Source: Actinomycetospora sp. TBRC 11914
GTDB taxonomy: Bacteria; Actinomycetota; Actinomycetes; Mycobacteriales; Pseudonocardiaceae
DNA: 64,000 nucleotides
NCBI RefSeq assembly: GCF_012933465.1
Contig: NZ_JABBND010000005.1
Span: 186,001-250,000 of the forward strand
Direction: 5' to 3'
This document shows, in pieces, positions 15,245 to 56,176 of the stretch. A program made the translations under genes and the position numbers. A model generated the notes under the pieces. It ran no database searches. It had not been told where the DNA came from and saw only the letters and a program-made list of their open reading frames with translations. Position 1 is the first letter of the stretch, and each line of letters opens with the position of its first letter.

Positions 15245-15293
15245 CGCGAGGGGAACCCCCGTGCCGCTAGAGCGACCGGATCCTCCCCTCGCG
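15245..15293 (+). repeat. 49-bp palindromic element, family A, copy 1 (overlaps gene start)
   Basis: Begins CGCGAGGGGA and ends TCCCCTCGCG (10-bp perfect terminal inverted repeat) with core TAGAGCGACCG. It lies in the 43-bp gap after the sugar transferase and extends into the next gene: GAGGGGA would act as its ribosome binding site and the internal GTG (15261) as its start codon. Confidence 0.9.
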
Positions 15294-16562
15294 TCCCGGG
15301 CGCTCGCCCTGACCCGCCGTCGTGCCCTCGCGCTCGGGGCGGGCCTGGCCGCCGTCGTGGGCGGGGCACTGTCCTGCGGGGCCTCGCCGTCGGGACCTCC
15401 CGCGACCGACCCCGACCTGCCGCGGCCGTCGGGCCCGCCGTTGTCGCGCGGGACGGTGCACGACGTGCGCGCCTCGGGCGCCGTCGGCGACGGGCGCGCC
15501 GACGACGCGGCCGCCTTCACCCGGGCGCTCGGGCTCGCGACGCCGGGCGACACCGTCCGGGTGCCCGCGGGTACCTACCGGCTCGTGCTGCCCCGGCCGC
15601 TGCGCGTGCCGGCCGGCGTGCTGCTGGCCGGCGACCCGGGTCGGACGACGCTGCGGGTGGCCGCCGGGGCGACCGCCGCGCTGCTGGTCGGCGGGGACGA
15701 CGTCACCCTCGACGGCCTGGAGATCGTGCGCGCCGACGACGCCGAGACGGTGCTGGTGCGCGTCGGGCAGGTCGCGCGGCTGACGCTGTCGCGGCTGGTG
15801 CTGGCCGGGGCCACCGACGTCGTCGACGCCTTCTGCCACGGCATCCAGCTGGGGGTCGACAACGGCGTCTCGAACGGTGTCACCATGTCCGGCTGCCTGC
15901 TGCACCGGCTGACCTACGGGCTCTACCAGGCCAACGAGTCGTCCGCGGTGACCGTCGGGGTGTCGGTGACCGGCTGCACTTTCGCGCGCAACACCAACAC
16001 CGACCTGGAGTTCAACAGCCCCTCGGGCTCGTTCCGGCACGTCCGCGTGCAGGGGTGCACGTTCCGGGACAACGACTCCCCCGGTTTCGCCGTCGGGATC
16101 GCCTACTGCGCGGACGTCGTCGTCTCCGGCTGCACGGTGACGAACTACCGGATGGAGGCGGTCCATATCGAGGACTGGTCCAGCGATGTCACCGTCTCGG
16201 GCTGCACGTTCTCGGCGTGCGGGCTGCGCGAGTTCGCGCACGTCCAGATCATCTCCGGGTCGGCCCGCGTGACGGCACGCGCCAACACCCACGACGCGAC
16301 GATGAACACCCGCCGGATCGCCCTCGTCAACGCGCTCGCCGGTGGGGACGGGCAGACCGCGGGCGGGCGGGACGTGGTGCCGCCGAGCGCGGTGACCGTC
16401 ACCGGGAACACCTTCCGCTGCTCCGACACCGTCGTCGCGGTGTCCTTCCACGGCGTCGCGGGCGGGTCGATCACCGGCAACCTCGTCACCGGGATCGCGC
16501 CCGAGGACGCGCTGGACCTGGACGGGGCGACGGGAATCCAGGTAGGTCCCTTCGGCTCGTGA
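15261..16562 (+). CDS. Secreted right-handed beta-helix (pectate-lyase-like) protein
   Basis: 433 residues from GTG 15261, the only in-frame start before the signal sequence; this codon and its GAGGGG ribosome binding site lie inside a family-A repeat. Residues about 15-40 (ALTRRRALALGAGLAAVVGG) look like a Tat-type signal, followed by ALSCG, which may be a lipidation site. The mature part starts VHDVRASGAVGDGRADDAAA and then shows repeated short turns ending in Gly-Cys or Ser-Gly-Cys (MSGCLL, VTGCTF, VQGCTF, VSGCTV). These are the rungs of a parallel beta-helix. Such proteins in polysaccharide loci are often lyases, epimerases or binding proteins. No catalytic residues can be named with confidence. 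The stop codon lies in a family-B terminator. Confidence 0.8.
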   Translation: MPLERPDPPLASRALALTRRRALALGAGLAAVVGGALSCGASPSGPPATDPDLPRPSGPPLSRGTVHDVRASGAVGDGRADDAAAFTRALGLATPGDTVRVPAGTYRLVLPRPLRVPAGVLLAGDPGRTTLRVAAGATAALLVGGDDVTLDGLEIVRADDAETVLVRVGQVARLTLSRLVLAGATDVVDAFCHGIQLGVDNGVSNGVTMSGCLLHRLTYGLYQANESSAVTVGVSVTGCTFARNTNTDLEFNSPSGSFRHVRVQGCTFRDNDSPGFAVGIAYCADVVVSGCTVTNYRMEAVHIEDWSSDVTVSGCTFSACGLREFAHVQIISGSARVTARANTHDATMNTRRIALVNALAGGDGQTAGGRDVVPPSAVTVTGNTFRCSDTVVAVSFHGVAGGSITGNLVTGIAPEDALDLDGATGIQVGPFGS

Positions 16563-16598
16563 GCAGAAAGTGTCGGTATACCGACAGTTAGTGCTCAC
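16559..16598. terminator. 40-bp family-B palindromic terminator, copy 1, between convergent genes
   Basis: GTGAGCA...TGCTCAC outer arms with inner AGTGTCGGTATACCGACAGT form a long stem. The TGA of the left arm is the stop of the beta-helix gene (16560-16562) and the TAA read from the other strand (16588-16590) is the stop of the GT4 gene. The same 40-bp layout recurs at 27008 and 29506. Confidence 0.8.
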
Positions 16599-17697: not shown

Positions 17698-17803
17698 GTC
17701 AGACCACTCAGCATGCCGAACCTTCCGCGCCGTGACCTACGGTCGTCGTCACGAGGAAAGTATCGCCCGTCCGGGCGATCCCGAACACCTGGATGTGGGT
17801 CAC

Positions 17804-18949
17804 GTGTCACACCCGTGTGCGGTAGCCGTCGCCGAGATGGAGGCCGCCGGCCACCGGTTGCGCTACGTGCGTCTCCTGCTCGCGGCCGTGCCGCCCGCGC
17901 GCCGCGTGCTGCTCGTCCCGCGGTCGGTCCGCGGCTCCGCGGAGTTCGCCGAGCACCTGGCGGACGTGGAGGCCGACGTCGTCGAGCTCCCGGAGTCGCG
18001 CCGACCCGCGATGGCGCTCGCGCTGGCGACGGCGGCGGCCCGCGGCGCCCGGCTGGTGGTCCCCGACGGCGACAAGAACGTCGCGCCGCTCCTGCTCGCG
18101 CTGGCCCGGTCGGGGTTCCGCCGCGCACCGGTGTCGCTGCTGCTCATGCGGACCGCCCTACCCGGCGGCCCGGAGCCGGCGACGGCGGGCATGGCGCTGA
18201 AGCCCGCGCTCGCGGGGGTCCTCGCCCGGGTCCCCGGCGCGCGGGTCCGGTTCCTCACCGACGCCTTCGGGGTGGTCGTGCGCCGCCGCGGCTTCCCCGG
18301 GATCGAGCCGGTGCGCGACCCGGTCGAGCCCCCCGCCGCAGCCCTCGAGCGCGAGGGGAACCCTCGGGCCGGTAGAGCGACCGGATCCTCCCCTCGCGAG
18401 TCGGGTGAGCCGTTCCGTGTCGGGGTGTTCGGCGTGGTCAGCGCCCGCAAGAACGTGCCCGTGCTCCTCGCCGCCCTGGCCGGCGCCCGTGACGACGACG
18501 CGGCGGCGGGGGCGCACCTCGTCGTCGGCGGTCGGTGCGAGCCCGACGTTCGCGAGTTCCTCGGCTCCTCCCCCGACGCGGCCGTCCTCACCGCCGCCGG
18601 GCGGCTGCACGTCGACGACCGCCTGCTCACCGAGGACGAGTTCGACACCGCGGTCGCCGGCGTCGACGCCGTCGCGGTGCTGCACGACAACGACGCCCCG
18701 AGCGGGGTCGTCGCCGAGGCGGCCGCCCGCGGCGTCCCGGTGCTGGGCCCGGCCCGGGGCTGGGCGTCGAGCATGGTGACCGGGACCGGGATCGGGGAGG
18801 TCGCCGAGGTGGACGACCCGGACGACGTGCGCGCCGCCCTCGGCCGGCTCGTGGACGCGCACCCGCGTCGCGCGGCCGCCGCCCGCCGGGCCCGCACGCG
18901 TCTCGGCACGAACCACTTCGTTCGGGGACTGCTCGGCAACGTGACGTAG
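17804..18949 (+). CDS. Glycosyltransferase-like protein carrying an in-frame family-A repeat
   Basis: About 381 residues from GTG 17804; GTG 17795 and ATG 17837 are close alternatives, and a longer in-frame extension to 17678 would overlap the divergent gene. EMEAAGHRLRYVRLLLAAVP matches the start of a GT-B group in exopolysaccharide loci (AGHRxRYVRLL). The C-terminal half begins FRVGVFGVVSARKNVPVLLA and has DNDAPSGVVAEAAARGVPVL in the place of the GT4 E-x7-E region, so it may be a divergent GT4 enzyme. Between the two halves, at about residues 183-199, lies EGNPRAGRATGSSPRE, translated straight from a 49-bp family-A element. This sits in the interdomain linker, where an insertion is tolerable. 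Confidence 0.75.
   Translation: MSHPCAVAVAEMEAAGHRLRYVRLLLAAVPPARRVLLVPRSVRGSAEFAEHLADVEADVVELPESRRPAMALALATAAARGARLVVPDGDKNVAPLLLALARSGFRRAPVSLLLMRTALPGGPEPATAGMALKPALAGVLARVPGARVRFLTDAFGVVVRRRGFPGIEPVRDPVEPPAAALEREGNPRAGRATGSSPRESGEPFRVGVFGVVSARKNVPVLLAALAGARDDDAAAGAHLVVGGRCEPDVREFLGSSPDAAVLTAAGRLHVDDRLLTEDEFDTAVAGVDAVAVLHDNDAPSGVVAEAAARGVPVLGPARGWASSMVTGTGIGEVAEVDDPDDVRAALGRLVDAHPRRAAAARRARTRLGTNHFVRGLLGNVT
18350..18398 (+). repeat. 49-bp palindromic element, family A, copy 2 (in frame inside glycosyltransferase)
   Basis: Full 49-bp copy with the CGCGAGGGGA/TCCCCTCGCG ends and TAGAGCGACCG core, in the same direction as the host gene. It is read as EGNPRAGRATGSSPRE without a stop or frameshift, in the linker between the two halves of the enzyme. 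Confidence 0.92.
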
Positions 18950-19017
18950 TCGCCTCCCCCGAGCGGTTCACGGATCTTCACCCATCCGATAGTCTCGCCG
19001 CGCTCGGACTGCAGACG

Positions 19018-22703: not shown

Positions 22704-22714
22704 CCGGCGAGTGC

Positions 22715-29500: not shown

Positions 29501-29550
29501 CGCTCGTGAGCACTAACTGTCGGTATAGCGACAGTTAGTGCTCACGAGCG
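29501..29550. terminator. Family-B palindromic terminator, copy 3 (perfect 22-bp arms)
   Basis: The arms 29501-29522 and 29529-29550 are perfect inverted repeats (CGCTCGTGAGCAC..., 22 bp) around GTATAG; the 40-bp core 29506-29545 matches copy 1. The TGA of the right arm (29542-29544 on the minus strand) is the stop of the siderophore-binding protein gene. It also follows the transporter gene closely, so it likely terminates both. Confidence 0.85.
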
Positions 29551-30528
29551 GAGCACCTGCTCGAGCGTCGTGAGCACGGCGTCGCCCTGGCGGTAGTGCG
29601 TCGTGTAGTAGTTCGGCAGCGGGAACGCCCGGCCGGCGCGGACCGCCGGTAGCGCGGCGAAGGCCGGCTGGGCGAGCAGCGTCCTCGTGCTCGCCTCGAC
29701 CTGACCCTGCGCGTCGGCGAGGTAGAGCAGGACGTCGCAGTCGGCGAGCTGCGAGGCCTGCTCGTAGGACAGCCGCGCTCCTGCACCCCGCTTCCCGGCC
29801 GTCGCCTGGCCGAAGCGGGCCCCGGCGTCGGCGAGGACGACCCCGCTCCACGAGGTCGGGTAGTCCGCGAAGAACGCCCCGCCGGAGCTGCCGCGGACCA
29901 GGCCCCAGGTCGTGCGCCCGAGTGTCGCCGCGAACCGTTCCCTGATCGCCGCCGCGTGCTGGGCGTACTGCGCCGCCACCTGCCGGCCCTGCGGGAGCCG
30001 GTCGACGGCGTCGGCCGTCGCGAGGGCCCGCTGCTTCCACGTCCCCGGCTCGCTGCCGGCGTCGAAGAGCGCGTACGGCGCGATCTGCCCCAGGTCCGCC
30101 TCGAGCCCCGGCTGCATCGTCGGGACCTTGGTGCCGAGGACGAGGTCCGGGTTCGCCGCGGCGAGAGCCTCGACGTTGATCGAGGTCGGCTGGCCGAGCT
30201 TGGGGATCGCGTCGTAGGCCTGCTGGTAGGGCGCGTACACCCCGCCGACGGTCGCCTGCGCGGTCGCGACCGGCGTGACGCCGACGTCGAGCAGCGCGTA
30301 GGTCGTGTAGAAGTCGATGCACGCCACCCGCTGCGGGTTCGCCGGGATCGTCACGGGCCCGTTCGCGGCCTGGATCTGCCGCGTGGGGCCCTGGATCCCG
30401 CTGCCGCCGCCCGTGTCGCCCCCGCCGCACGCGGCCAGCGCGCCGACGGCGGCGATCCCCCCGAGTCCGGCGAGGAACCCGCGGCGCGAGACGCCGGGCG
30501 GCACGGGCAGGGAGCGGGGGGACGTCAC
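29542..30528 (-). CDS. Iron-siderophore ABC transporter substrate-binding lipoprotein
   Basis: 328 residues from GTG 30528, overlapping the stop of the large NRPS by four bases (GTGA). The start has a Tat-like SRRGFLAG and a lipobox (GALAACGGG), so it is a lipoprotein on the outside of the membrane. The mature protein has the two-lobed periplasmic-binding fold of class III (FepB/FhuD-type): [19 protein letters not shown] and [20 protein letters not shown]. It would capture the ferric siderophore and hand it to FepDG. Being coupled to the NRPS supports a role in recovering the cluster product. Confidence 0.92.
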
Positions 30529-33500: not shown

Positions 33501-36500
33501 GAGCGCCGCCCCGTCGACGGGATAGTTCTCGACGACCAGGAGGGTGTCGGCGAGCTGGGTGTGCCCGGCGGCGCGGGTGATGCGGGCGAGGCCGACGTGC
33601 GTGCGGTCGGCCAGCGCCGCCTGCTCGTCGCGGACCTGCTCGAGGAGGGTCCCGACGCGGGTCGACGGGGCCGGCCGCACCCGCACCGGGACGGTGTCGA
33701 TGAACAGCCCCACGGTGCCGGTGTCCTCGCCGCCGCGCCCGGACACCGTCTGGAGCAGGACGACGTCGCCAGTCCCGGTCGCCCAGCCGAGGACGATCCC
33801 CCACGCGACCTGGAGCAGCGTCGCGGGCGTGACCCGACGACGGCGGGCGAGGGCGCGCAGACCGTGCCGGGTCCGGTCGTCGAGGGTGACGGGGGTGCGG
33901 GCCGGTACGGGGTCGTCGACGACGTCCTGCGGCGCCACCAGCGTGGGCCCGGCCAGTCCGGCGAGGTGCTCCCGCCAGGCGTCGAGATCCTCGGCGGGGT
34001 CGCGGGCGGCCAGCCGGGCGAGGTGGTCGCGGTGCGCCGGGGCGGGGCGGGCGGGGGCGCGGCGGGCCCAGGTGTCGAGCAGGTCGCGCACGAGGATCGG
34101 CATCGACCAGCCGTCCACGGCGACGTGGTGGACAGTGAGCACGAGGTGGTGGCGGTCGGCACCGCGGACGAGGGTGGCGCGCAGCAGGGGGCCGCGGGCG
34201 AGGTCGAAGGTGCGCCGGTCGTCGGCCCGCACCTGCGCGAGGGGAACCCTCGTGTCCGTAGAGCGACCGGATGTTCCCCTCGCGTCGGTCGGGTGGTCGA
34301 GCTCGACGACGCGGAACGCCCCGTGGGGCGGGTCGGCGAGCACGACGGCGAGGGGGCGGCCGTCGGCGCCGGCGGGCAGGACCGTGCGCAGGGCGTCGTG
34401 CCGGGCGACGGTCGCGGTCACCGCCTCGCCCAGCGCGCCGACGGATTCGTCGTCGAGGTCGCCGGACAGCGGCAGCGTGAGCTGGATCGTGTAGGGGTCC
34501 GAGCCCTCGCCGCCGCGGAGCATCAGCCCCTCGGCGAGCGGGGCGGGCGGGAGGACGTCGACGACCCGGGCCGGGGCGACGACGCCGAGCACCCGCTCCA
34601 GGTCCTGCTCGTCGAGGGGGGCGGTGACGGCGGCCGGGGTCGGGTTGGCGAGCACGCCCAGGTCGTGGCCGGGGAGTGCGGCGAGCGCTGGGAGGGCGTC
34701 GGCAAGGGCGTCGAGGAGCGCGTCGACGTCGTCGTCGTGCAGGGTCGGCCCCGGCCACGCGGCGCGCACGACGAGGTCGTCGCCCTCGAGGACCGTGTCG
34801 AGGGTGAGGTGGGCCGGGGTCGGGCGGTCGGGGTCGCCGCCGCCGTGCAGGCCCGGGGCCTCGGGGGCGGGGTCGCCGGGGCGCGTCGCACCGGGGACGA
34901 CGGCGGGCGCGCGCCCCAGGTGGTTGAGGACCACCTCGGGCGGCGGCAGCGCGCCCAGCACGCGCGCGCCCTCGTCGTCGAGGTGGCGCAGCACCCCGAA
35001 CGCCGAGTCCGGACCGGGCAGCCCGTGGCGGGCCGTGACGACGCGGCGCAGCACGCGGGCCAGGAGCACGAACGGCCGGTTCGTGACCATCGAGGGTGCC
35101 GAACCGGCCGTTCGTCCCGGCAGGTCGGGCGGGTATGGCGGGTCCGGCAGCTCGAGCCCGCGCAGGTCCACCCGGACCGGGACGACCGTGGTGAACCAGC
35201 CGACCGCGTCGGACCCGGCCCCGCCGTCCCCGCGCCCGTGCCCCTCGACCTCGACGACCAGCGGCCCACCCCGCCCGACCCGGCCGGCCGCGAGGGCCAG
35301 CGCGGCGAGCACGACGTCCTCGCCGGTCCCGCCGACGAGCGCGCCCGCCGCGGTGAGCCCGGCCGCGCCGGCGATCCGGCGTTCGCGGCGGTGCAGGGCG
35401 GCGGCGACGTCGCGGGTGGGGTCGAGCGGGCCGCGCAGCGGCAGGGCGGGCGCGTCGCGGCGCAGGACGGCGGCCCAGCCGGGGAGCTGGTCGCGGAGTG
35501 CGGCGGCCCCCTCGGCGAGCCGGCGGGCGTGCGCGAGGTAGCCGGGGGCGGGTGCCGGGTCGGGGTCGGTCAGGTCCCGGGCGAGGCGCTGCCAGGACAC
35601 GGCGTCGACGGCGACGTGGTGCGCGACGAGCACGAGCCGCCCCGCCCCGCCGTCGCCACCGCCGTCCCCGACGACGTGGACCGCCTCGAGCACGTGCCCG
35701 CGCTCCGGGTCGAGCCGGTCCGCGGCCCGGGCGGCCTCGTCGTCCAGCACCGCGGCGAGGTCGCGGTCTCCGGCGTCGACCCGGCGCAGCGCGACCTCGC
35801 CGGGTTCGGTCCGCACCATCCTGTGCGCTGTGAGGTCGACGCGCACCGACAGCGCGGGGTGCCGGGCGAGGAGGCCCGTGAGGGTGCGGCGCAGCTGCTC
35901 GGTGTCGCCCTCGACCACGAACGCCCGCCACTGGTGGAACCGCCGCCACGGACCGGCCGCGACGAGGGCCTGCGCGACGGGGAGCAGCGGGGCGTCGTCG
36001 GGGTCGGTCGCGGTGGCCGGCTGCTCCGTCGGCGTCCCGGCGACGGCGGCCAGCGCGGCGACCGTGCGCTGCTGGAGCACCTGCCGCGGGGTGACGACGA
36101 CGCCGGCCGCCCGTGCCCGGGCGACCACCGCGATCGCGAGGATGCTGTCGCCGCCGAGGGCGAGGAAGTCGGCGTCGACGGGCACGGCGTCGACGCCGAG
36201 CACCTCGCCGACGGCGCCGGCCAGCGACGCCTCCACCGCGCCCGCTGGACCCCGGCCGGCGTCGTCGGGACCCGTGGTCGGATCCGGCAGCGCGCCGCGG
36301 TCGACCTTGCCGCTCGGCGAGAGCGGCACCGCGTCCACGACGGCGAGGGCGCGGGGGACCATGTGCTCGGGGAGGCGGTCGGCGACGCCGGCGAGGAGGG
36401 CGTCGCGGTCGATGTCCGCGCCGGGCGCGGGGACGACGTGGGCGACGAGGCGGACGGCGCCGGCGGGGGTCGTGCGCACCGAGGCGACGGCCTGCCCGAC

Positions 36501-39500: not shown

Positions 39501-42500
39501 GAGCCGGACCGGGTGCACGACGGTGAACCACCCGACGGTGCGCGAGAGGTCCGGACCGTCGGCGGGCACCTCGCGGCCGTACCGCTCCCGGTCGACGACG
39601 AGGCCCTCCCCGCCGGCGTGCCGTGTCACCGCGAGGAGGACGGCGGCGACGAGCACGTCGTCGACGCCGCCGCGGACGCTCGCGGGCAGCTCGCCGAGGA
39701 GCGGCCCGGTGACCTCCGGCGGCAGGGTCACGTGGTGGTGGGACTGGGTCCCGACGGTGCCGGGGGCACCCGCCGTCGTCGTGAGGCGGGCGTCGCCGGA
39801 CCGGGGGGCGGTGGTGCGCCAGTGGTCCTGCTCGGGTTCCCGGGCGGCGGCCGCGGCGGGGAGGTCGGCCGTCCAGGTGCGGAAGGAGGTCGGGACGGGA
39901 TCGAGGGCGGGTGGGTGGCCGGCGGCGAGCGCCGCGTGCGCCGCGCGCAGGTCGTCGGTGAGGACGCGCCAGGAGACGGCGTCGACGACGAGGTGGTGTG
40001 CGGCGAGGACGAGCCGGTCCCCGACGAGGGTCGCGGCGAGCATGCGCCCGCCCTCGGGGTCGAGCCGGGCGACGGCGTCCTCGACGGCGGCGTCGAGCGC
40101 ATGATCATCGGGATGGGGTGGCTGCGGACCTGCGTCGCGCGGGGCGATGGCGTCCCGGTCGAGCGTCCGGAGCACGTCGGCGGCGGTGACGGCGCCGGCG
40201 GCCGGGACCTCGAGCATCGGTTCCTCGCCGCGCACGAGGCGGGCGCGCAGCAGGTCGTGGCGGGCGAGGACCGCGTCGAGCGCCTCGACGACCCGCGCCC
40301 CGGCCGGGACGGTCAGCACCACCCGCTGGTGGTACCGCGCGATCGGCCCACCCACCGCGGCGCACCGCGCGAGCCAGGCCCGGGCGACCGGCAGCAGCGC
40401 GACGGTCCCGGTGCCGTCGTCGACCGGCGCGGGGGCGTCGTCGCCGATCCGCACCGCCACCGCGGCGAGCTCCCGGGCGGTGCGGCGCTCGACGACCTGC
40501 CGCGGCGTCACGGTCCATCCGGCCCGCCGTGCGCGGGTGACCAGCGCGAGCGCGACGATGGAGTCGCCGCCGAGGGCGAAGAAGTCGTCGTCGACCCCCA
40601 CGGTGTCGAGCTCGAGCACGTCGGCGACCACCCCGACGAGGTCGTGCTCGGCCGGCGTCGTCGGCTCCCCGCCCGCCCCCGCCGTCGTCGTGCTCCTCTG
40701 GATCTCCTTGAAGGCGGGCGCGGGGAGCGTCGCGCGGTCGATCTTGTTGTTGGCGGTGACCGGGAAGGCGTCGAGCACGACGACGGCCGCCGGGATCATG
40801 TGCTCGGGGAGCCGCTCGGCGGCGCGGCGGCGGAGCGCGGCGGGGTCGGGGTCGCGGCCGGTGACGTACCCGACCAGCTGCGGCCGGCCCCCGTCGCGCC
40901 GGACGACGACGAGGGCCTGGGTCACCGCCGGGTCCTCCGCGAGGACCGCCGACACCTCGCCGGGCTCGATCCGGAACCCGCGCAGCGACACCTGCTCGTC
41001 GGCGCGGCCGAGGTAGTCGAGCTCGCCGGGCCAGGGGTCGGGCTCGCCGCTGGGCAGCGTGCGGGGGCGGCGGCGGACGAGGTCGCCGGTGCGGTACATC
41101 CGGGCGCCGGGCTCGTCGAACGCAGCGCCGAAGGGGTCGGCGAGGAAGCGCTCGGCGGTGAGGTCGGGCCGGTCGAGGTAGCCGCGTGCCAGGCCGGCGC
41201 CGGCGAGGTAGAGCTCCCCGACGACGCCGTCGGGCACCGGGCGCAGCCGCCGGTCCAGCACGTAGGCGCGGCCACCGACGTCGACCCGGCCGATCGGTGC
41301 GGCGCCGGTCTTCCGGACCGACTCGGGGTCCAGGCGCCCGAGCGTGGCGTTGACGGTGACCTCGGTGGGGCCGTACGCGTCGAAGAGCCGCCGGGTGTGG
41401 CCCCACCGCGCGACGAGCTCCGGGGGCACGGCCTCGGTCCCGACGAGGATCGTCATGCCCTCGGGCAGCGGGGCGTCGGCGGGGAGCGCGCCGGACACGC
41501 TGGGCGGGAGCGCGGCGTGGGTGACGCCCTCGTCGCGCAGGTAGGCGGCGAGCGCGTGGTCGGGGCTGCGCAGCGCGGTGGGGACGAGCACGCAGGTCCC
41601 ACCGACGCAGAGCGCCATCGACATCTCGAAGAACGCGAGGTCGAAGCTGACGCTCGCGAACATCGCGACCCGGGAGTCCGGGGTGACCGCGAGGCGGGGC
41701 GGGTCGGTGGCGGTGGCGACGAGGTCGGCGACCCCGGCGTGGGGCACGACGACGCCCTTCGGCCGGCCGGTGGAGCCCGAGGTGAAGATCAGGTAGGCGG
41801 CGTCGTCGGGGTGGGGCTCGGGGAGGGGGTCGCCGTCCCGTGCAAGCGGAGCGTCGTTGCTTGCATCCAGTGACAGGAAAGCCACGTCGTCGAATCCCGG
41901 ATCCGAGCCGTCCGTGATCACCACGACCGGCTCGGCCTCGCGGACCATGAGCGCCAGCCGGTCGGCCGGGTAGTCGAGGTCGAGCGCGAGGTACGCCGAC
42001 CCGGAGCGCAGCACCGCGGTGAGCGCGACGACGAGGTCGACCGTCCGCGGCAGCGCCACCCCGACGACCGCGCCCGGCCCGGCTCCGCGCGCCACCAGCG
42101 CCCGGGCGAGCCGCCCCGACCCCTCCTCGAGCTCGGCCCACGTCACCGTCCGCTCGCCGTCGCGCACCGCGGGCTTCGCGGGGTCGAGCGCCGCGGCGCG
42201 GGCGAAGAGCGCGGGCCACGTCGTCGGGACGCTGCGGTGGGGTTCGTCCGGCGCCGGGGTGTTGGGTGCGACGACGAGGCGGTGCCGTTCGTCCTCGTCC
42301 GTCACCTCGATGTCGACGAGCCGCCGCGCCGGGTCGGCGCCGACGGCCGTGAGCACCCGCAGCACCCGGTCGGCCAGCACCTCGGCGTCGGCGGTGGACA
42401 GCGCGTCGGGCCGGTACACCACCCGCAGCCGGGCCGGCGCGTCGCCGTGCGCGGGGAGCGCGACGACGCTGACTGGGTAGTGCGTCGCGTCCCGGATGCC

Positions 42501-43595
42501 CACCTCCCGCACTCCCAGCCCGGGGGCGAGCGCGGCGAGGGCCGACGGGTCGAGCCCGACGTTCTCGACCACGAGCAGCGTGTCGAACGGCTCCCCCTCG
42601 ATCCCGGCCAGCCGCGAGACGGTCGCCAGGTCGGCCTGCTCGTCGGCGAGCCGGGACCGGCCGCGGGCCCCGAGCGCGTCGATCAGGTCCGCGACGGTGC
42701 GCCCGCCGTCGGGACCCGGCGACGCGTCGACGCGCACCGGCAGCGTCGCCACGAACGGCCCGATCATCTCCTCGACGCCGTCGAGCGCCGCGGGGCGACC
42801 CGAGACGGTCGTGCCGAACACGACGTCGTCGCGCCCGGTCAGCCGCGCGAGCGTGAGCCCCCACGCGGCCTGGAGGAGCGTCGCCAGCGTCCACCGGGAG
42901 GTGTCGAGCGCGGGGAGCGCGCGGGTGACCGCCGACGGCAGGTCGGGCGGAGTGTCGGGCAGTGCCGGCACCAGCCGCGTCGGTTCGTCGAGCCCGGCGA
43001 GGTCGGCGGCGACGCGGCGGGCGGCGGCGTCGCGGTCCAGCGTCGCGAGGTGCTCGAGGTGGCGGCGGAACGGGACGGGTGCCGCCGACGACGCGGCGCC
43101 GGTGTCCGCCGTCGTCAGCAGCTCGCGCAGCAGCGGGCCCAGCGACCAGCCGTCGACGACGAGGTGGTGCAGCGTGATCGCGAGCCGCCAACCGGTGCCG
43201 CGCCTGATCAGCAGCGCGCGGACCAGCGGCGGGGTGGCGAGGTCGAAGGGCCGGCGGCGCTCGTCGAGGCAGCGCTCCTCGACCTCGTCGTCGGTCTCGG
43301 CCGACGTCTCCTGCCACGGCACCCGCGCGCGGGTGGGGACGACGGCGACCGGCTCGCCCCGCGTGCGGTCCCGCACCGCGGCGCGGAGCACGTCGTGGCG
43401 GGCGAGCACGGCGTCGAGCGCGGCGTGGAGGCGCTCGGGGCGCGGGCCATCGCCGTCGACGACGAGCTGGATGGTGTACGGGTCGACGGCTCGCTCGTCG
43501 GTCGAGCCGTCCCGTCGGGCGAGGTAGAGCAGGCCGCGCTGCAGCCCGGTGAGCGGCAGGACGTCGGAGACGCCGCGCCGGGAGGCTCCGGTCAC
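30525..43595 (-). CDS. Nonribosomal peptide synthetase, three modules (C-A-T-E / C-A-T-E / C-A-T-TE)
   Basis: 4356 residues from GTG 43595, overlapping the stop of the first NRPS (GTGA). Module 1: C (HHLVVDGWS near 147), A (450-950), T (LGGDSI near 1007), E ([10 protein letters not shown] near 1202). Module 2: C (HHAILDGWS near 1622), A (1950-2430), T (near 2482), E ([10 protein letters not shown] near 2660). Module 3: C (HHVAVDGWS near 3158), A (3465-3950), T (LGGHSLL near 3998), TE (GWSYGG near 4130). The A2 code reads DVWHFSLVDK, so Ser (made D by E2). A1 and A3 read DLFALGAVNK and DVWILGAVNK, similar to each other; ornithine or hydroxyornithine is a guess supported by the monooxygenase gene. 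Several palindromic elements (A, E, F, G, H) lie in frame. It elongates the DHB-peptide and releases the siderophore. Confidence 0.95.
30698..30722. repeat. Perfect 10-bp palindrome (H) in the thioesterase-domain end of the NRPS
   Basis: CGTCAGGAAC (30698-30707) and GTTCCTGACG (30713-30722) are perfect inverted arms, read in frame as RQERVVPDG about 55 residues before the C-terminus. It may be a small relative of the other in-gene palindromes; alone, a 10-bp palindrome is weak evidence. Confidence 0.45.
34236..34284 (+). repeat. 49-bp palindromic element, family A, copy 3 (antisense, in frame inside NRPS C domain)
   Basis: Full 49-bp copy with both ends and the TAGAGCGACCG core on the plus strand, i.e. 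antisense to the host gene. It is read through as [18 protein letters not shown] in the N-terminal half of the third C domain (about residue 3110). Orientation and frame differ from copy 2, yet no stop codon results. Confidence 0.92.
35068..35115. repeat. Family-E palindrome, copy 1, in frame inside the second epimerase domain
   Basis: ACGAACGGCCGGTTCG (35068-35083) and CGAACCGGCCGTTCGT (35100-35115) are perfect 16-bp arms with a 16-bp loop. It is read as [17 protein letters not shown] at about residue 2830. The arm closely resembles that of copy 2 in dhbC (14 of 16 bases). Confidence 0.85.
37372..37430. repeat. Family-F perfect 26-bp palindrome, in frame just before the A3 motif of the Ser A domain
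   Basis: GATGGCAGCGGTGTCGCATC (start of the 26-bp left arm, 37372-37397) pairs perfectly with 37405-37430 around GTTGAGT. It is read as [19 protein letters not shown], about 20 residues before [10 protein letters not shown] of the serine A domain. A 24-bp half copy is in the start of fepG. Confidence 0.9.
41841..41894 (-). repeat. Family-G 54-bp repeat, copy 1 (sense orientation in A domain of NRPS module 1)
   Basis: Read on the minus strand it encodes [18 protein letters not shown], about 30 residues before TSGSTG. The sequence suits an A domain at that place, so this could be the original copy. The same 54 bases (50 identical) occur inverted at 46698-46751. Confidence 0.85.
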
Positions 43596-46500
43596 CGCGG
43601 GCTCGGCAGGGCGTCGTCGGGCTCGTCGTCGAGGTCCTCGAAGCCGAGGTCGTCGAGCTCGTCGTCGTCGAGGTCCACGAGCGGGGCGGGCGTGTCGTCA
43701 GCGGCGGCGGGTGTCCCGGTGGGCCGGGCGACGGCGGCCAGCGCGGTCGGGGTGCGCAGGTCCAATACGTCCGCGACCTCGACGGTCCAGCCCGCCGCGC
43801 GCGCCCGCGCCACGACCCGGATCGACGCGATGCTGTCGCCGCCGAGGGAGAAGAAGTCGGCGTCGGGGTCGGCGGAGGGCACGCCGAGGACGTCGGCGAA
43901 CACTGCGGCGAGCGCGCGGGCGGCCTCCTCCGCGGCGCGAGGGGAGGATTCGGTCGCTCTATCCGCCCCAAGGGTCCCCTCGCGCAAGAGGGTCGCCGCC
44001 TCGGCCGGGCCGCGAGGGGAGGATTCGGTCGCTCTAGTCGCCCGAAGGGTCCCCTCGCGCGGAACGGTGGGCACCGGACCGTCCGCGTCCGCGGCCATCT
44101 CCCGCAGCGCCGCCACCAGCGCGTCGACCACCCCGCGCGCCGTCGCCTCGTCGTACAGCGCGCTCGCGTACTCCAGCCGGCCGCGGACCCCGTCCGCGCC
44201 GCGGGTCTCGGTGAGCTCCACGGTGAGGTCGAGCTTCGCCGTCCCGGTGCCGCGCAGCTCGGTGCGCGCCGGCCGGCCACCGAGCGGCGGGACGTCCGCC
44301 CGGACCTCCCGGTGGGTGAGCATCACCTGGAACAACGGGTGCCGTCCCGGCCGGCGCGGCGGCGCCACCGCGGCCACCACCTCGTCGAACGGCACGCCGG
44401 CGTCGGCGACGGCGCTTAGGTCGGCGTCGCGCACCCGCCCCAGCAGCTCCCGCACGGTCGCCACGCCGTCGAGACGCACCCGCAGCGCGACCAGCCCGAC
44501 GAAGAGCCCCACCAACGGCTCGGCGGCCGCCTCGTCCCGCCGCGCCACCGGCGTCCCGACGACGACGTCGCTCCCGCCCAGCACCGCGACGAGCGCCGCG
44601 TGCACGACCATGAACGTCGTCGTCCCGGTCTCCCGCGCGAGCGCCCGGACGCCGCGGTGCAGCGCCGCGTCGATCTCGACCGGGACCTCCCCACCGGCGG
44701 GCGACGGCCGGGCGGGACGCGGTCGGTCGGGCGGCACCGTGACCTCGACGGGCGCGTCGGCGAGGCGCGCCCGCCACCGCGCCAGCCCGTCCGCCGGGTC
44801 GCCGCGGCGGGACGCGGCCGCCCGCGTCGTGCGGGCGTAGGTCGTCGGCAGCGGGGCGAACGACGGCGCGTGCCCGGCGAGGCGGGCGGCGTGGGCGGTG
44901 GCGAGATCGTCGTAGAGCGTCGCGAGCGACCACTCGTCCCCCGCGAGGTGGTGCACGACGACGACGAGCGCGGCCCGCCCCGGCGCCCGCACCAGCGTGG
45001 CGCGCACCGGGATCGTCGTCGCGACGTCGATCGGGGTGCGGGCGGCGGCGTCGACGGCGGCGTCGAGGGCCGCGTCGTCCTCGGCCTCGACCCGGTCCAG
45101 GCACACCTCGGGTGCGTCGAGCACGTCCTGCCACACGGTCCCGGGGTCGTCCGGGTCCTCCCGCGGGATCGTGCGCAGCGGTTCGTGGCGCGCGACGACG
45201 TCGCCGATCGCCGCCACGAGCGCGTCGGCCTCGTCGTCGGCGAGCGCCCCGTCGAGGTGGACGACGAGCGGGATGTTCCACGTCGCGGTCGGGCCCTGCA
45301 GCCGGTGGAGGAACCACAGGCTGCGCTGGGCCGGGGACAGCGGAGCGCGGCCCGGATCATCGACACGGCCCTCGTCGTCGGGAACCACCGCGGCGCTGCC
45401 GGGGGTGAGGCGCGCGGCGAGGTCGGCGAGGGTCGGGGCGTCGAACACGTCACGCACCGAGAGCTCCGCGGCGAGCCGCTCCCCGACCCGCGCGGCCAGC
45501 CGCGCCGCGAGCAGCGAGTGCCCGCCGAGGGCGAAGAAGTCGTCGTCGGGCCCGGCCTCGGCGCCCAGCAGCGTCGTCGCGACCTCGCACACCGCCGTCT
45601 CGGCCGGCCCCTCGGCGGCCCGGCCGGCCGCCGTCGTCGTGCCCGGCGCGGGCAGGCGGGCGCGGTCGACCTTGCCGTTGGCGGTCTCGGGGAAGGCGTC
45701 GAGCACGACGACGGCCGAGGGCAGCAGGTGGGCGGGCAGGGTGTCCGCGAGCCGGGCGCGCACGGTCGCCGTCGTGAGGTCCCCGGTCCCCACGACGTAG
45801 GCGACGAGCCGTCCGCCGGTGTCGTCCTTCACCAGGGTCACGACGCTGCGGGTCACCCCGTCCAGCCCGTCGAGGGTGGCCTCGATCTCGCCGGGCTCGA
45901 CGCGGTGGCCGCGCACCTTGATCTGCTGGTCGGCCCGGCCGACGTAGTGGAGGGTGCCGTCGGGGTCGCGGCGGGCGAGGTCACCGGTGCGGTACATGCG
46001 GGTGCCGGCCGGGCCGTGGGGGTCGGCGACGAACCGCTCGGCGGTGAGCGCGGGCCGGCCGAGGTAGCCGCGGGCCAGTCCGGCGCCGGCGAGGTGGAGC
46101 TCCCCGACGACGCCGTCGGGCACCGGCTGCAGCGCCGCGTCGAGGACGTGGGCGCCGGCGCCGGTGATGGGGCGGCCGATCGCGGGGCTGTGCGAGGTGG
46201 TCGCCCAGACGGTCGCCTCGGTGGGGCCGTAGAGGTTAGTGACGGCGGCGCCGGCGGCGGTGAGCTCCGCGTGCAGCGACGCGGGCAGGGCCTCGCCCCC
46301 GACGAGGACGGTGACGCCGTCGAGCACGTCGGGGCGGTCGTCCGGCCCCAGCACGTCCAGCAGCGCCCGGTAGAGCGTCGGGGTGGCCTGGACGGTGAGG
46401 GGCTCGTGCCGCCGTGCGGTGCGCAGGAGGGCGGCGAGGGCCGTCGGGTCCTGGACCGTGCGCCGGGGCGCGACGACGAGGCGGGCGCCGGCGAGGAGCG

Positions 46501-48610
46501 GGGTGAGCAGTTCCAGGGCGGCGATGTCGAACCCGACCGTGGTGACCGCGACGAGCGTGGCGCCCGGCGCGAGGCCGGTGCGGGGCAGCATGTCGAGCAG
46601 GAAGGTGCGCAGCGCGTCGCGGGGGACGACGACGCCCTTGGGCCGGCCGGTCGAGCCCGAGGTGTGGATGACGTGGGCGGGGTGCCCGTCCTCGGAGTTC
46701 GACGACGGGGCTTTTCTGCCACTGGATGCAAGCAACGACGCTCCGCTGGCATCGAGGGTGGGCACATCCGGCGCCGCCGCCGCGAACGTCGCCGCCGTCT
46801 CGTCCGTGACCACCCCGACGACGGGGTCCGCGTCCTGGAGGATCTGCGCCAGCCGGGCGGCGGGGGCGTCGAGGTCGAGCGGCACCCACCCGCACCCGGC
46901 GTGCACCGCGGCGAGCACCCCGACGACGAGGTCCACCGTCCGCGGCAGCGCCAGCGCCACCAGCGACTCCGGGCCGGCCCCCGCCTCGACGAGCGACAGC
47001 GCCACGGCCCGGGCCCGGGCGTCGAGCTCGGCGTGCATCAGCTCGGACCCACCCGGCTCGGCCACCGCGACCCGCTCGCCGTGCTCGCCCGCCGCCGCGG
47101 TGAACAGCTCCGCGAGCGACCGCTCCGACCACGCCGCCGGCACCGAGGGCCCGGCCCCCGCCGCCAGCACCGCGTCCCGCTCGGCCGCGCCGAGCAGCGG
47201 CAGCGACCCGACCCGGCGCTCGGGCGCGCTGTCCGCCAGCTCCTCGAGCAGCCCCGCGAGCCGGCGCGCGTGCCCGGCGAGCTCGTCGGCCGTGTAGGTG
47301 GCCGGGTTGGCGTCGACGTCGAGGGCGAGCGAGCCGTCGGGGGCGCGCTGGACGTTGACGGCGAGGTCGTGCACCGGCCCGCCCGAGACCGGGCGGGCGG
47401 TCCCGGAGACGGTCGCGCCGGCCGTGCCGCCCACCCGGAGCTCGTCGGCGAACGGCTTCACGTTCACCCACGGCCCCACCAGCGCCGACCCGCCGGGCGA
47501 CCCCTCCGCCCGCACCCGCAGGTCCCGTCGGAGATCCTCCACGGCGTAGCGGGCGTGCCCGCGGACCGCGGCGATCTCGGCGGCGACACCGGCCACGAGC
47601 GCGGCGACCGGCGCCCCGGGGTCGACGGTCACGCGCACCGGCACGATCGTCACGAGCATCCCGGGGGTGCGGGACGCGACGGCGCGGTGCGGGCCGGACA
47701 GCCGGTTCATCATCGGCACGCCGAGCACGACACCGCCGGAGCCGGAGCCGGCGCCGGAGCTGCCCGACCCGCCGTCGGGACCCCCGGAGCCGTGCCGCGC
47801 CAGCAGCACCGCGACCGCCGCGAGGACCGCGTCGGGCCACGAGGCGTCGTCCGCGAGCCGGTCCAGGCCGTCGACCACCGCGGAGGGCAGCGTCGTGCCC
47901 TCCCGCCGGAAGGTCCGCGACGTGAGCGCGGTGCCACGGCCGAGCGTCGCGGGCTCGGGGGCCGCCGGGAAGCGGCCGGCGAAGAAGTCCCGGTCGGTCT
48001 CCCGGGTCGCGGTCGCCGCCTCGCGCTCGCCGGTCACGAGGTCGGCCAGCGACCCGAACCGCCGCGGCGGCACCTCCGCACCCGCCGCCAGCGCGCTCGA
48101 CACCGCGGCCACCCGTCGGGCGATCAGCGAGAACCCGTACGCGTCGGTGACGAGGTGGTGGTAGCGGTGGAACCAGACGTGGTGGTCGTCGGCGAGGCGC
48201 AGCAGGGCCTGACCGAACAGCGGTTCGCCCGAGGACGGGTCCACCGGCCGCTCCAGCGCGGCGCGCATCCACCCGACGGCGGCCGCGTCCGGGTCGGGCT
48301 CGCCCGCGAGGTCGACGCGCTCGACCCGCCACCCCGGGCGCTCCGCCGGCGCGAGCGGCTGCTGGCGCGGCTCCCCGTCGACCTCCACGACCCGCACGTG
48401 CAGGGCGTCGGCCTCGTCGACCGCGACCCGGACGGCCCGCACGAAGGCCTCGACGTCGAGCGGCCCGCGCAGGTCGACGCGCTCGCCGGTGGTGTAGATC
48501 GGGTTCCCCGGATCGAGCCGCTGCGCGAACCAGATGCCCGCCTGCGCGGTCGTCACCGGGAGCGTGCCCCTGGTGTCCGCCGTGCCCACCCTGGCACGCA
48601 CCTCCCTCAC
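43592..48610 (-). CDS. Nonribosomal peptide synthetase, C-A(Gly)-T-C-T (second module lacks an A domain)
   Basis: 1672 residues from GTG 48610. Domains: C (HHLVTDAYG near 154), A (about 490-960; [10 protein letters not shown] near 656), T (LGGHSLL near 1027), C (starts [12 protein letters not shown] near 1089; HHLAGDEWS near 1220) and a final T (LGGDSIA near 1590) with an acidic tail. The A code reads DILQLGLVWK, the Gly type, as in DhbF of bacillibactin synthesis, so the first C probably joins dihydroxybenzoate to Gly. The second module goes straight from C to T; two tandem family-A elements ([16 protein letters not shown] and [16 protein letters not shown]) fill the junction. Its T must be loaded from elsewhere, or the module is skipped. 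It is followed directly (GTGA) by the three-module NRPS. An imperfect iron box lies upstream. Confidence 0.95.
43936..43984 (-). repeat. 49-bp palindromic element, family A, copy 4 (NRPS C-T junction)
   Basis: Full element in the sense direction, read as [16 protein letters not shown] at about residue 1550. It is the second of a tandem pair, separated from copy 5 by 26 bp; the two differ at 3 of 49 positions. It directly precedes the T-domain helix. Confidence 0.93.
44011..44059 (-). repeat. 49-bp palindromic element, family A, copy 5 (NRPS C-T junction)
   Basis: Full element in the sense direction, read as [16 protein letters not shown] at about residue 1525, immediately after the end of the C domain. 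With copy 4 it occupies exactly the place where the missing A domain would start and end. Confidence 0.93.
46698..46751 (+). repeat. Family-G 54-bp repeat, copy 2 (antisense orientation in the Gly A domain)
   Basis: On the plus strand it would encode [18 protein letters not shown], matching copy 1, but the gene runs on the minus strand, where it is read as [16 protein letters not shown]. The same DNA thus sits in opposite orientation in two paralogous A domains, 15-25 residues before TSGSTG. Confidence 0.88.
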
Positions 48611-50186: not shown

Positions 50187-50191
50187 GCCGG

Positions 50192-51451: not shown

Positions 51452-51583
51452 TGCGCCGAGTGTGGACCGTCGCGGACGGGCCCGCGACGCCCGATCGCGC
51501 CATCCCGGCCCGGACCACCCCGGCGCGGGGGTGGCCCGGCGGCGTCGCACGAGGTGGGGATCCCGCCCGGACCCGTCCCGACA

Positions 51584-51647: not shown

Positions 51648-51730
51648 CGCGCCGGAACCCCCAGCCTGCCCGAACCCTTCGGAGCGGCCCCGCCGTCGCG
51701 TCCCGGGGCCGCGGGCGCCCCGTCGGCTCG

Positions 51731-53111: not shown

Positions 53112-53135
53112 ACCGGCTCCTTCCTGCTCGTCGAG

Positions 53136-53154
53136 TTAGCTGACCCTAACCTAA
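53136..53154 (-). promoter_or_regulatory. IdeR/DmdR1-like iron box upstream of the ArCP-MbtH-SIP unit
   Basis: TTAGCTGACCCTAACCTAA (plus strand) matches the iron-box consensus at 16 of 19 positions. It lies 24 bp upstream of GTG 53111 and overlaps the TAG stop codon of fepC (53151-53153), so a regulator bound here would sit at the end of the upstream operon. Confidence 0.75.
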
Positions 53155-53972: not shown

Positions 53973-55045
53973 CTCCCCGCCCTCCACTCGCGCGCCAACA
54001 ACCACACCAGGTACAGCCCCCCGATCGCCGCGGTCATCGTCCCGGCGGGGAACTGCGCCGGGGCGGCCAGCCGCTGTCCGAGCACGTCCCCGGCGAGCAG
54101 CAGCAGCCCGCCGAGCACCGCCGCGGCGACGAGGCCGGGGCCGGTCGTCCCGGTCAGCCGCCGGGCGAGCTGCGGGGCCGCCAGCGCCACGAACGCGATC
54201 GGGCCGACGGCCGCCGTCGCGATCCCGACGAGCACCACCCCGACGCCGAGCGCGACCGCCCGCGTCGAGGCCACCGGCACCCCGACCGACCCGGCCGCCT
54301 CGTCGCCCATCGCGAGCAGGTCCAGCCGCCGGGAGATGCCCAGCGCGGGCACCAGCAGCACGGCGAGGCCGGTCCCGACGACGGCGACCGTGGTCCGGTC
54401 GCCCCCGGTGAGGCTCCCGACGAGCCAGGTCTGGGCCGCCGTCGCGACGGTGAGGTCCGAGCGCAGGATGAGGTAGTTGTCGACGGCCACGAGGATCGCG
54501 TTCAGCCCGATCCCGACGAGCACCAGCCGGTACCCGCCGGTGGCCCCGCCGAGCAGGGCGAGCGCGACGAGGGCCGTGGCCAGCGTGCCGACGACCGCCC
54601 CGACCGCCGTCCCGCCCGCCCCGGCGCCGAAGACCACGATCGCGATCAGCGCGCCGGTGGCCGCCCCGGTGGTGAAGCCGAGCAGGTCCGGGCTCGCGAG
54701 CGAGTTGCGGGCCAGCGACTGGAACACCGCCCCCGCGACGCCGAGCGAGGCCCCGACCACCAGCGCGAGCGCGACCCGGGGCGCCCGCAGGTCGAGCACC
54801 ACGAAGCGATCGACCCGCGAGCCGGAGCCCGCGAGCGTCGCGAGCACCCGCGACAGCGGCAGCGGGAAGTCCCCCAGGGTCAGCGCGACCGCCCCGAGCG
54901 CCACCGCGACGACGGCGAGCCCGACGACGACCGCGACGGCCCGCGGGTGCACCCGGACGGTCCAGGGGCCGGCCCCGACGGTGTGGATTTCCGGACGTCC
55001 AGTGTCTGCGATGCGACACCGCTGACTCTCCGCCGGGGCACTCAC
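53969..55045 (-). CDS. fepG: FecCD-family ferric-siderophore permease (FepG-like)
   Basis: 358 residues from GTG 55045, overlapping the fepD stop (GTGA). Nine or ten hydrophobic helices are visible, beginning VAVVVGLAVVAVALGAVALT. LRAPRVALALVVGASLGVAG, FQSLARNSLASPDLLGFTTG and FVALAAPQLARRLTGTTGPG are the usual FecCD signatures, the last being the loop that touches the ATPase. The first 20 codons ([17 protein letters not shown]) are not family sequence: they come from a half copy of the F repeat. FepD and FepG would form the channel for the cluster's siderophore. Confidence 0.95.
   Translation of the reverse strand: MSAPAESQRCRIADTGRPEIHTVGAGPWTVRVHPRAVAVVVGLAVVAVALGAVALTLGDFPLPLSRVLATLAGSGSRVDRFVVLDLRAPRVALALVVGASLGVAGAVFQSLARNSLASPDLLGFTTGAATGALIAIVVFGAGAGGTAVGAVVGTLATALVALALLGGATGGYRLVLVGIGLNAILVAVDNYLILRSDLTVATAAQTWLVGSLTGGDRTTVAVVGTGLAVLLVPALGISRRLDLLAMGDEAAGSVGVPVASTRAVALGVGVVLVGIATAAVGPIAFVALAAPQLARRLTGTTGPGLVAAAVLGGLLLLAGDVLGQRLAAPAQFPAGTMTAAIGGLYLVWLLAREWRAGR
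54980..55024. repeat. Family-F half copy at the 5' end of fepG
   Basis: Positions 55001-55024 are identical to 37402-37425 (24 bp) in the Ser A domain of the NRPS. The adjoining CCGGACGTCCAGTGTC (54991-55006) also occurs, inverted, at the 6273 terminator region. It is read in frame as RCRIADTGRPEI in FepG. Confidence 0.8.
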
Positions 55046-56160
55046 AGCGCCACCACCCGCCGTCGTCGCGCGATCGCCAGGAACACCGGGGCGCCGACGA
55101 ACGCCGTCACCACCCCGACCTCCAGCTCGGCCGGCGCCGCCACCACGCGGCCCACGACATCGGCGGCCACCACCAGCACCGCGCCGAGCACCATCGAGTA
55201 CGGCACCACCCACCGCTGGTCCGGCCCGGTGACGAACCGCGCCAGGTGCGGCACCGCGAGGCCGACGAACGCCACCGGCCCGCACGCCGCCGTCGCGCCC
55301 CCGCACAGCAGCACGATCGCGATCCCGGTCGCCGCCCGCACCCGCGGGACCCGCACGCCCAGCGCCCGCCCGGTCTCCTCCCCCAGCGCGAGCGCGTTGA
55401 GCGCCCGGCACAGCCCCAGCGCCACCAGCACCCCGACGACGAGGAACGGCAGCACCTCGAGCAGCCCGCCGGGGTCGCGGCCGGTCAGCGACCCGACCCG
55501 CCACACCCGGAACCGGTCGAACGCCCGGGAATCCGTCAGCACCACCGCGTACACGACGCCCTGCAGCGACGCCCCGATCGCGGTCCCGGCGAGCGCCAGC
55601 CGCGCCGGCGTCGCGCCCGAGCGCCCGGACTGCCCGAGCAGGTAGACCACCACCGCGACGAGCGCCGACCCGGCCAGCGAGAACCACACGTACCCCGAGG
55701 TCGAGGCCACCCCGAACACCACGATCCCGGCGACGATGGCCGCGGAGGCGCCCCACGTGATCCCGAGGACGCCGGGGTCGGCGAGCGGGTTGCGGGTCAG
55801 CGCCTGCATCAGCGCCCCCGCCCCGCCCAGCGCGACCCCGCAGGCGAGCCCGAGGAGCGTCCGCGGCAGCCGCTGCTCGAGCACGACGATCGCGTCGGTC
55901 GCCGTCGGGGACGCCGCCGGACCGAGCCGCAGCGACGGGTGCAGCACGACGTCGAGGACGGTCCCCGGGGCGATCCCCCGCGAGCCGACCGCGAGGCTCG
56001 CCAGGAGCACCACGACGAGACCGGCAAGCGTCGCGACCAGCCCGAGCGCCCGGCGCGACCACGGCCTCGGCGACTCCTCCCGCGACTCCGCCGCGGGCGC
56101 CGCGGTCCGGGTCCGCCCGGCCCCGTCCGCGAGGGGAGGATCCGGTCGCTCTAGCCGCAC
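55042..56160 (-). CDS. fepD: FecCD-family ferric-siderophore permease (FepD-like)
   Basis: 372 residues from GTG 56160, chosen because it is the only start before the first membrane helix and because GAGGGGA lies 6 bp upstream. Both are inside a family-A element, and the start overlaps the isochorismatase stop by 10 bases. The protein has nine or ten helices; LEQRLPRTLLGLACGVALGG, ALTRNPLADPGVLGITWGAS and FVGLAVPHLARFVTGPDQRW are the FecCD family signatures. It pairs with FepG. The first 30 residues (MRLERPDPPLADGAGRT) are element-derived and resemble the start of the beta-helix protein. Confidence 0.95.
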   Translation of the reverse strand: MRLERPDPPLADGAGRTRTAAPAAESREESPRPWSRRALGLVATLAGLVVVLLASLAVGSRGIAPGTVLDVVLHPSLRLGPAASPTATDAIVVLEQRLPRTLLGLACGVALGGAGALMQALTRNPLADPGVLGITWGASAAIVAGIVVFGVASTSGYVWFSLAGSALVAVVVYLLGQSGRSGATPARLALAGTAIGASLQGVVYAVVLTDSRAFDRFRVWRVGSLTGRDPGGLLEVLPFLVVGVLVALGLCRALNALALGEETGRALGVRVPRVRAATGIAIVLLCGGATAACGPVAFVGLAVPHLARFVTGPDQRWVVPYSMVLGAVLVVAADVVGRVVAAPAELEVGVVTAFVGAPVFLAIARRRRVVAL

Positions 56161-56176
56161 GAGGGTTCCCCTCGCG
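56128..56176 (-). repeat. 49-bp palindromic element, family A, copy 6 (dhbB stop / fepD start junction)
   Basis: Full element on the minus strand. Its core TAG gives the stop codon of the isochorismatase gene (56151-56153), and its GAGGGGA and GTG give the likely ribosome binding site and start codon of fepD (56160). Copy 1 at 15245 is placed in the same way at a gene start. Confidence 0.93.

What the first reader, a model, noticed from the sequence alone, without database searches (positions are those of the whole stretch)
15245..56176. Family A: six copies of an exactly 49-bp palindromic element, mostly inside genes
Copies at 15245-15293, 18350-18398, 34236-34284, 43936-43984, 44011-44059 and 56128-56176 all have CGCGAGGGGA/TCCCCTCGCG ends and a TAGAGCGACCG core. 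Four lie in frame within genes, in both orientations and in different frames, without giving stop codons; two lie at gene starts. This parallels the Rickettsia palindromic elements, which insert in coding genes, but I know of no actinomycete family with this sequence. Exact equal length suggests copying of a unit, not chance palindromes. It may be an undescribed mobile repeat.
Basis: partly seen in the sequence, partly recalled or inferred. Interest (0 to 1): 0.88.

Follow-up and report, generated by a model that had tools for sequence, protein, structure and literature searches.

The report
Fixed-length DNA palindromes behind genes
A soil bacterium carries dozens of similar 49-letter mirror-image DNA repeats, often just behind genes and often in pairs whose spacing steps by about one turn of the DNA helix, which points to an unidentified protein that reads them.

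Summary
In detail: six 49-bp palindromes lie at the stated places, and the genome has 57 copies with exact ends against 0 in the reversed-pattern control. The genus is Actinomycetospora.

The reading changes. Of 69 copies examined in this genome, 8 lie inside genes; 30 lie 5-45 nt behind a stop codon on that gene's strand (random 2.0%). All 18 held genomes of the genus give matches, some few and weak; other genera of the family have similar repeats. The conserved unit is G plus the 49-bp palindrome. None of the 18 genomes has a Y1/RAYT transposase.

Neighbouring copies are spaced in steps of about ten bases: 71 of 76 gaps of 8-60 bp are 5-7 modulo 10, mainly 15-17 and 25-27; in this genome alone 27 of 30. 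This suggests helical phasing and a DNA-binding protein. One copy within a gene is shared by eight species yet resembles its own genome's copies more than its orthologue.

My reading: a REP/BIME-like family without RAYT, recognised as double-stranded DNA. Its role at gene ends is open; mobility was not directly shown.

The parts
15245..15293 (+). 49-bp element, type a; 27 nt behind the stop codon of the sugar-transferase gene 13883-15217 (+)
   Evidence: Bac_transf PF02397
18350..18398 (+). 49-bp element, type a, sense, codon offset 0, in a variable linker of gene 17837-18949 (+; no Pfam match at 1e-5); not seen in the 9 other orthologues read
34236..34284 (+). 49-bp element, type a, antisense inside the NRPS-like gene 30525-43595 (-; NRPS by reading, no family search); the G118 orthologue lacks it and is 18 residues shorter there
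43936..43984 (-). 49-bp element, type a, sense in the NRPS-like gene 43592-48589 (-); second of a pair, gap 26 bp
44011..44059 (-). 49-bp element, type a, sense in the same gene; first of the pair. G118 has a type-b pair with the same 26-bp gap at this place
56128..56176 (-). 49-bp element, type a; supplies the end and stop codon of the isochorismatase gene 56151-56864 (-), in front of the FecCD gene 55042-56013 (-)

Best explanation
A genome-dispersed family of REP/BIME-like repeats. The unit is a G followed by a 49-bp imperfect palindrome. I think it is recognised in double-stranded DNA by an unidentified sequence-specific protein, which often acts on two copies that lie on the same face of the helix (start-to-start about 65 or 75 bp, rarely about 85 or 95). 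Shown: the family, its fixed length, the 5' G, paired-arm covariation, position and strand behind genes, stepped spacing of pairs, no Y1 transposase found, and higher similarity among copies of a genome than to an orthologous copy. Inferred: that a protein binds it, that copies are made or homogenised within a genome, and that at gene ends it helps transcription termination or takes up supercoils. Copies inside genes are tolerated in variable protein linkers, where sense copies encode an REGxPRxxRAxxSSPR-like peptide.
For: 57 exact-ended copies, control 0. The base before the element is G in 111 of 113 type-a and 87 of 91 type-b copies, while the base after is free in type a. 30 of 69 G000 copies have a same-strand stop 5-45 nt upstream against 2.0% of random positions; 6 have an opposite-strand stop at that distance on the far side (4 have both). 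Pair gaps of 8-60 bp: 69 of 74 are 5-7 modulo 10; 71 of 76 with two mistyped model rows removed and an unselected 400-kb stretch of G118 added; within G000 alone 27 of 30 (P about 1e-11 against a uniform 30%); in unselected stretches and the window 6 of 8. G118 19 of 19 and G042 4 of 4 among the stretches taken for those genomes. Long-hairpin covariation: 17 of 22 pairs with double changes, score 0.433 against 0.154 in shuffles. The site-1 copy of G000 is 0.865 identical on average to other G000 copies but 0.69 to its G042 orthologue.
Against: No binding protein was identified and no experiment done. The period rests mainly on two peaks, near 16 and 26; gaps near 35 and 45 are 2 each, and the circular statistic is broad: 0.822 at period 9.5, 0.856 at 10.0, 0.854 at 10.5, 0.826 at 11.0. 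Pairs are not fully independent (orthologues, local duplications). In G000 gaps 19, 38 and 40 do not fit, two of them among the five gaps of the unselected 360 kb. The strand preference behind genes is hard to explain by a near-symmetric duplex site alone. Of the 42 sequences in the covariation test, 30 (8 congeneric and 22 of other genera) were found with a model that already holds part of the stem, and palindromes can also be kept perfect by template switching without selection (recalled).
Confidence: 0.6

Rival explanations
1. Transcription terminators or 3'-UTR RNA hairpins: the repeats act in RNA, ending transcription or protecting mRNA 3' ends.
For: 22 of the 30 same-strand distances of 5-45 nt are 14-23 nt behind the stop; at one conserved gene end, G178, G204, G205 and G206 have other strong GC-rich hairpins instead (by eye); MFE -24 to -29.9 kcal/mol for the six window copies, z -2.3 to -5.3; strong stem covariation. 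E. coli REPs are often 1-20 nt behind ORFs (PMC12306157, passage) and REPs are cited as helping Rho termination (PMC2817692, passage).
Against: Ten-base steps of pair spacing have no evident RNA reason. In 114 gene-oriented copies the outer stem has 57 A-C mismatches but 3 G-U pairs in the sense RNA, opposite to RNA-stem selection; 30 of the 57 sit at one pair position and look inherited. No U-tract: T is 0-19% at each of the 12 positions after 53 exact copies. Fixed length and loop sequence are not needed for termination; copies occur inside genes.
Confidence: 0.3
2. Non-autonomous mobile element (MITE) moved by an unknown non-Y1 transposase. The enzyme, bound to one copy, inserts the next at helically phased distances, which would produce the pairs.
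For: Many similar copies; lineage-specific copies such as window 18350 (1 of 10 orthologues); 3' edge without a conserved next base and near-invariant 5' G; phased pairs.
Against: No target duplication or clean empty site could be shown; no enzyme found and no Y1 transposase; some pairs look like local duplications, with identical or nearly identical members.
Confidence: 0.35
3. Gyrase or other topoisomerase loading sites at gene ends, like E. coli BIME-2.
For: Position behind genes and between convergent genes; pairs with gaps 16 and 26 span 114 or 124 bp, near the length of DNA that gyrase wraps (recalled). BIME-2 binding gyrase is stated in PMC2817692 (passage).
Against: No direct evidence here.
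Confidence: 0.2

Closest known systems
REP / BIME / REPIN elements with RAYT (enterobacteria, Pseudomonas)
   Same: Short dispersed palindromes in high copy, often behind genes, singly and in pairs; preferred pair distances (REPIN peaks at 71 and 110 bp, PMC3116915, passage).
   Different: No Y1 transposase in 18 of 18 held genomes; 49 bp rather than the 20-40 bp given for REPs (PMC3733652, start of abstract in the listing); no GTAG beside the ends; ten-base steps of spacing.
CGTC-type REPs
   Same: REP-like without a dedicated transposase (PMC3733652, passages).
   Different: The ends here are not CGTC; sequences of those families were not compared.
Rickettsia palindromic elements (RPE)
   Same: Copies inside genes, in frame, in one preferred frame (10 of 10 sense copies).
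   Different: RPEs are about 150 bp with nearly half in ORFs (PMC10969869, passage); here 49 bp and 8 of 69 inside genes.
Actinomycete intrinsic terminators without U-tract (recalled)
   Same: Position and hairpin strength.
   Different: Fixed length, conserved loop and 5' G, stepped spacing of pairs, copies inside genes.

Membership tests
REP with RAYT | RAYT / Y1 transposase (PF01797) encoded in the genome | tested here: not met
   0 of 18 held genomes of the genus (15 of them at least 90% complete and at most 5% contaminated); the control rings in 5 of 14 named genomes
REP with RAYT | Dispersed, mainly extragenic palindromes, over 50 copies | tested here: met
   57 exact copies; 8 of 69 examined copies inside genes
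REP with RAYT | GTAG tetranucleotide at one end | tested here: not met
   Flanks of 53 exact copies read by eye: pyrimidine-rich, then G, no GTAG next to an end
Rickettsia palindromic element | Copies inside genes in one preferred frame | tested here: met
   10 of 10 distinct sense copies inside genes of G000 and G042 at codon offset 0; 4 distinct antisense copies, 3 at offset 2 and 1 at 0
Rickettsia palindromic element | Element of about 150 bp, nearly half of copies in ORFs | tested here: not met
   49 bp; 8 of 69 inside genes
MITE | Target-site duplication and clean empty sites | tested here: inconclusive
   Flanks too diverged; at site 2, 8 congeners have a short linker without the element
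Intrinsic terminator | Hairpin behind stop codons followed by a U-tract | tested here: not met
   Hairpin and position met for part of the copies; U-tract absent
Known structured RNA (Rfam 15) | Match above gathering score | tested here: not met
   0 matches in the window

The most novel reading that the evidence does not exclude
A family-wide class of bipartite chromosomal DNA sites in Pseudonocardiaceae: 50-bp units of invariant length, set in pairs at whole helical turns behind genes, read by an undescribed protein, and kept alike within each genome without a RAYT. Sequence versions differ by genus, as if site and reader co-evolve.
Probability: 0.4. Interest if true: 0.86.

Novelty: new variant of a known kind. 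Interest (0 to 1): 0.7.

Why it matters
REP-like repeats are usually explained by RAYT transposases (recalled, and PMC3733652, passages). Here is a numerous family with no Y1 transposase found, whose paired copies keep a ten-base step and whose copies inside genes can be compared across species. It makes a testable case of whether such repeats are selfish passengers or sites for a chromosome- or transcription-acting protein, and shows short DNA repeats entering protein linkers in one preferred frame.

Tried and rejected
RAYT-driven REP: rejected, no PF01797 in 18 genomes. Solitary arms: in 360 kb of contig C12 four arms stand outside elements, at scattered places; I did not look for transposase genes beside them. 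Two mini-hairpins as the conserved fold: each arm is itself nearly palindromic, but that fold shows no excess covariation (0.141 against 0.134 in shuffles), unlike the long hairpin. Clean insertion gaps in the two window genes: junctions not resolvable. Published description: none seen in the listings (guessed a wrong genus); no proof of absence. Position analysis in G157 and G053: my pattern matched nothing, so no result.

Weak points. Gene calls come from my own codon-usage caller, not an annotation. The 69 G000 copies come from the window, 360 kb of C12 and stretches fetched around known copies, not from the whole genome. Counts are capped, and both strands of a palindrome are counted. The other-genus sequences were fetched with model R2, so their shared 47-nt core (47 of 47 palindromes) is partly selected. 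Length-free scan of unselected stretches: GCGAGGG arms in C12 (360 kb), 5 of 13 distances are 47 and the other 8 all differ; in G118 (400 kb) GCGAAGG arms 4 of 6, GTGAGGG 1 of 1, GCGAGGG none; in G053 (400 kb) GTGAAGG 2 of 2, GCGAAGG 0 of 2, two other arms none. Seed-free scans of strong hairpins give broad lengths with no dominant peak at 49 (49 leads in the window alone), so the fixed length belongs to this family, not to hairpins in general.

Full report
Check. In the whole 6.52-Mb genome the two ends, with a free distance of 20-40 bp, occur 57 times and 0 times in the reversed control; the list was cut, and all 50 distinct places it showed are 49 bp, with ten-base ends fixed by the search and a variable but recognisable interior. 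In a sample of the family 7 of 200 genomes match this exact pattern: G000, four congeners with 1-4 copies each, and two genomes (G120, G197) with one hairpin each of other length and sequence.

Who carries it. A covariance model from 37 copies gives matches at E up to 0.01 in 18 of 18 held genomes of the genus; several have few or weak matches (G205 two, best E 0.003; G178 one). Two types stand out: type a (CGCGAGGGGA or CGTGAGGGGA ends, asymmetric interior) and type b (AGCGAAGGGC...GCCCTTCGCT, often symmetric). Both are 49 bp; of 41 motif-anchored type-b matches with free span, 38 have the same span. A scan of named genomes found the type-a pattern in 24 stretches, 18 of them Actinomycetospora; the six others, in unrelated bacteria and one Amycolatopsis, are other hairpins. 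A type-b model matches 81 of 200 genomes and 26 of 46 genera of the family at E up to 1e-4, many of them with one to three matches. Ten genomes with many matches carry their own versions of the same length, a length that the model favours. That the family is Pseudonocardiaceae is inferred from the genus and from recall.

Where it lies. With my own gene caller, 30 of 69 type-a copies examined in G000 have a stop codon of a same-strand gene 5-45 nt upstream, 22 of them at 14-23 nt, against 2.0% of random positions; 6 have an opposite-strand stop at that distance on the far side; 8 lie inside genes, 6 sense and 2 antisense. The 39 other copies include those inside genes, second members of pairs, five whose gene ends inside the element, and intergenic copies with no stop nearby. 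In G042 9 of 23 copies and in G118 (type b) 16 of 36 have such a same-strand stop; in G118 11 have an opposite one, but the orientation of symmetric type-b copies is uncertain. Between convergent genes each gene often has its own copy.

The unit. The base before the element, in its own orientation, is G in 111 of 113 type-a and 87 of 91 type-b copies; the base after it is free in type a. Since that G has no regular partner in type a, the conserved unit is at least 50 bp. The outer stem covaries across types and genera: 17 of 22 pairs show changes on both sides; 30 of the 42 sequences were found with a model that holds part of this stem. In gene-oriented copies A-C mismatches outnumber G-U pairs 57 to 3, which does not look like selection on the sense RNA stem; 30 of the 57 come from one pair position.

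Pairs. Of 76 unique neighbouring pairs up to 120 bp apart, 74 have gaps of 8-60 bp, and 69 of these are 5-7 modulo 10: 29 at 15-17, 36 at 25-27, 2 at 35 and 2 at 45-46. After removal of two mistyped rows from the type-b matrix and addition of an unselected 400-kb stretch of G118 it is 71 of 76; in G000 alone 27 of 30; in unselected stretches and the window 6 of 8, the misses being 38 and 40. Direct and convergent pairs, and a-a and b-b pairs, behave alike; a-b and b-a pairs are too few (6) to judge. Spacer sequences look unrelated to each other by eye. The one pair seen in another genus has gap 26. This is the strongest sign of DNA-level geometry, although it rests mainly on two peaks.

Evolution. 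In a gene with the three thiamine-pyrophosphate enzyme domains (Pfam) an element sits in the same linker in G000 and 7 of 7 congeners read closely, while the stretch between fixed flank points, element included, varies from 67 to 124 nt; the A. soli copy has matching changes in both arms. Three more distant congeners (G201, G204, G207; 66-67% identity, possibly paralogues) show no element; the rest were not examined. The G000 and G042 copies there are 69% identical to each other but 86.5% and 82.6% on average to other copies of their own genomes: concerted evolution, or repeated replacement. In a second gene, which I read as an HldE/RfaE-like fusion from its sequence without a family search, G000 has one type-a and two type-b elements, G075 and G118 two type-b-like ones, G151, G098 and G042 one type-a, and 8 other congeners 29-68 nt between the flank points without any; of 16 loci given, 14 could be read. 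The copy at window 18350 is present in 1 of 10 orthologues; that at 34236 is absent in the G118 orthologue. The NRPS pair at 43936/44011 is matched in G118 by a type-b pair with the same gap. At one gene's 3' end (L093, gene ending at 8306) different species have type a, type b or an unrelated GC-rich hairpin, read by eye.

What it is not. No Y1/RAYT transposase found in the genus, no Rfam match in the window, no U-tract.

Conclusion. The family is real and I saw no description of it in the papers I could search. I read it as REP/BIME-like sites acting in duplex DNA with an unknown protein partner; termination, topology and insertion preference are the open choices for the gene-end position.

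Noticed in passing
window about 29502-29545 and 16556-16598; also contig C12 around 264196, 290442 and 209578: A second palindromic family, CTCGTGAGCACT...TGTCGGTATAGCGACA...AGTGCTCACGAG, about 48 bp, mostly near gene ends.
   Followed up: partly
G000 contig C12 275728-275781 and 276640-276691 (L087): Two nearly identical copies of another long palindrome, AGGGAGTCACTGTGCG...CGTGCAGTGACTCCCT, about 0.9 kb apart.
   Followed up: no
L118, L114, L112, L113 behind the orthologues of L092 gene 15882-17681 (-): Further hairpin repeats of another type (GCGAG(A/G)GTGACACCAGGCAG and its complement), seen in several congeners at the same gene end.
   Followed up: no
L288 (G202), linker beside the element: A Pro-Ser-type linker expansion (repeated CCCTCG) directly beside the element inside the gene.
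   Followed up: no
G000, five type-a copies including window 56128-56176: Genes whose stop codon lies in the element core (distance -26): the element supplies the gene's end.
   Followed up: partly
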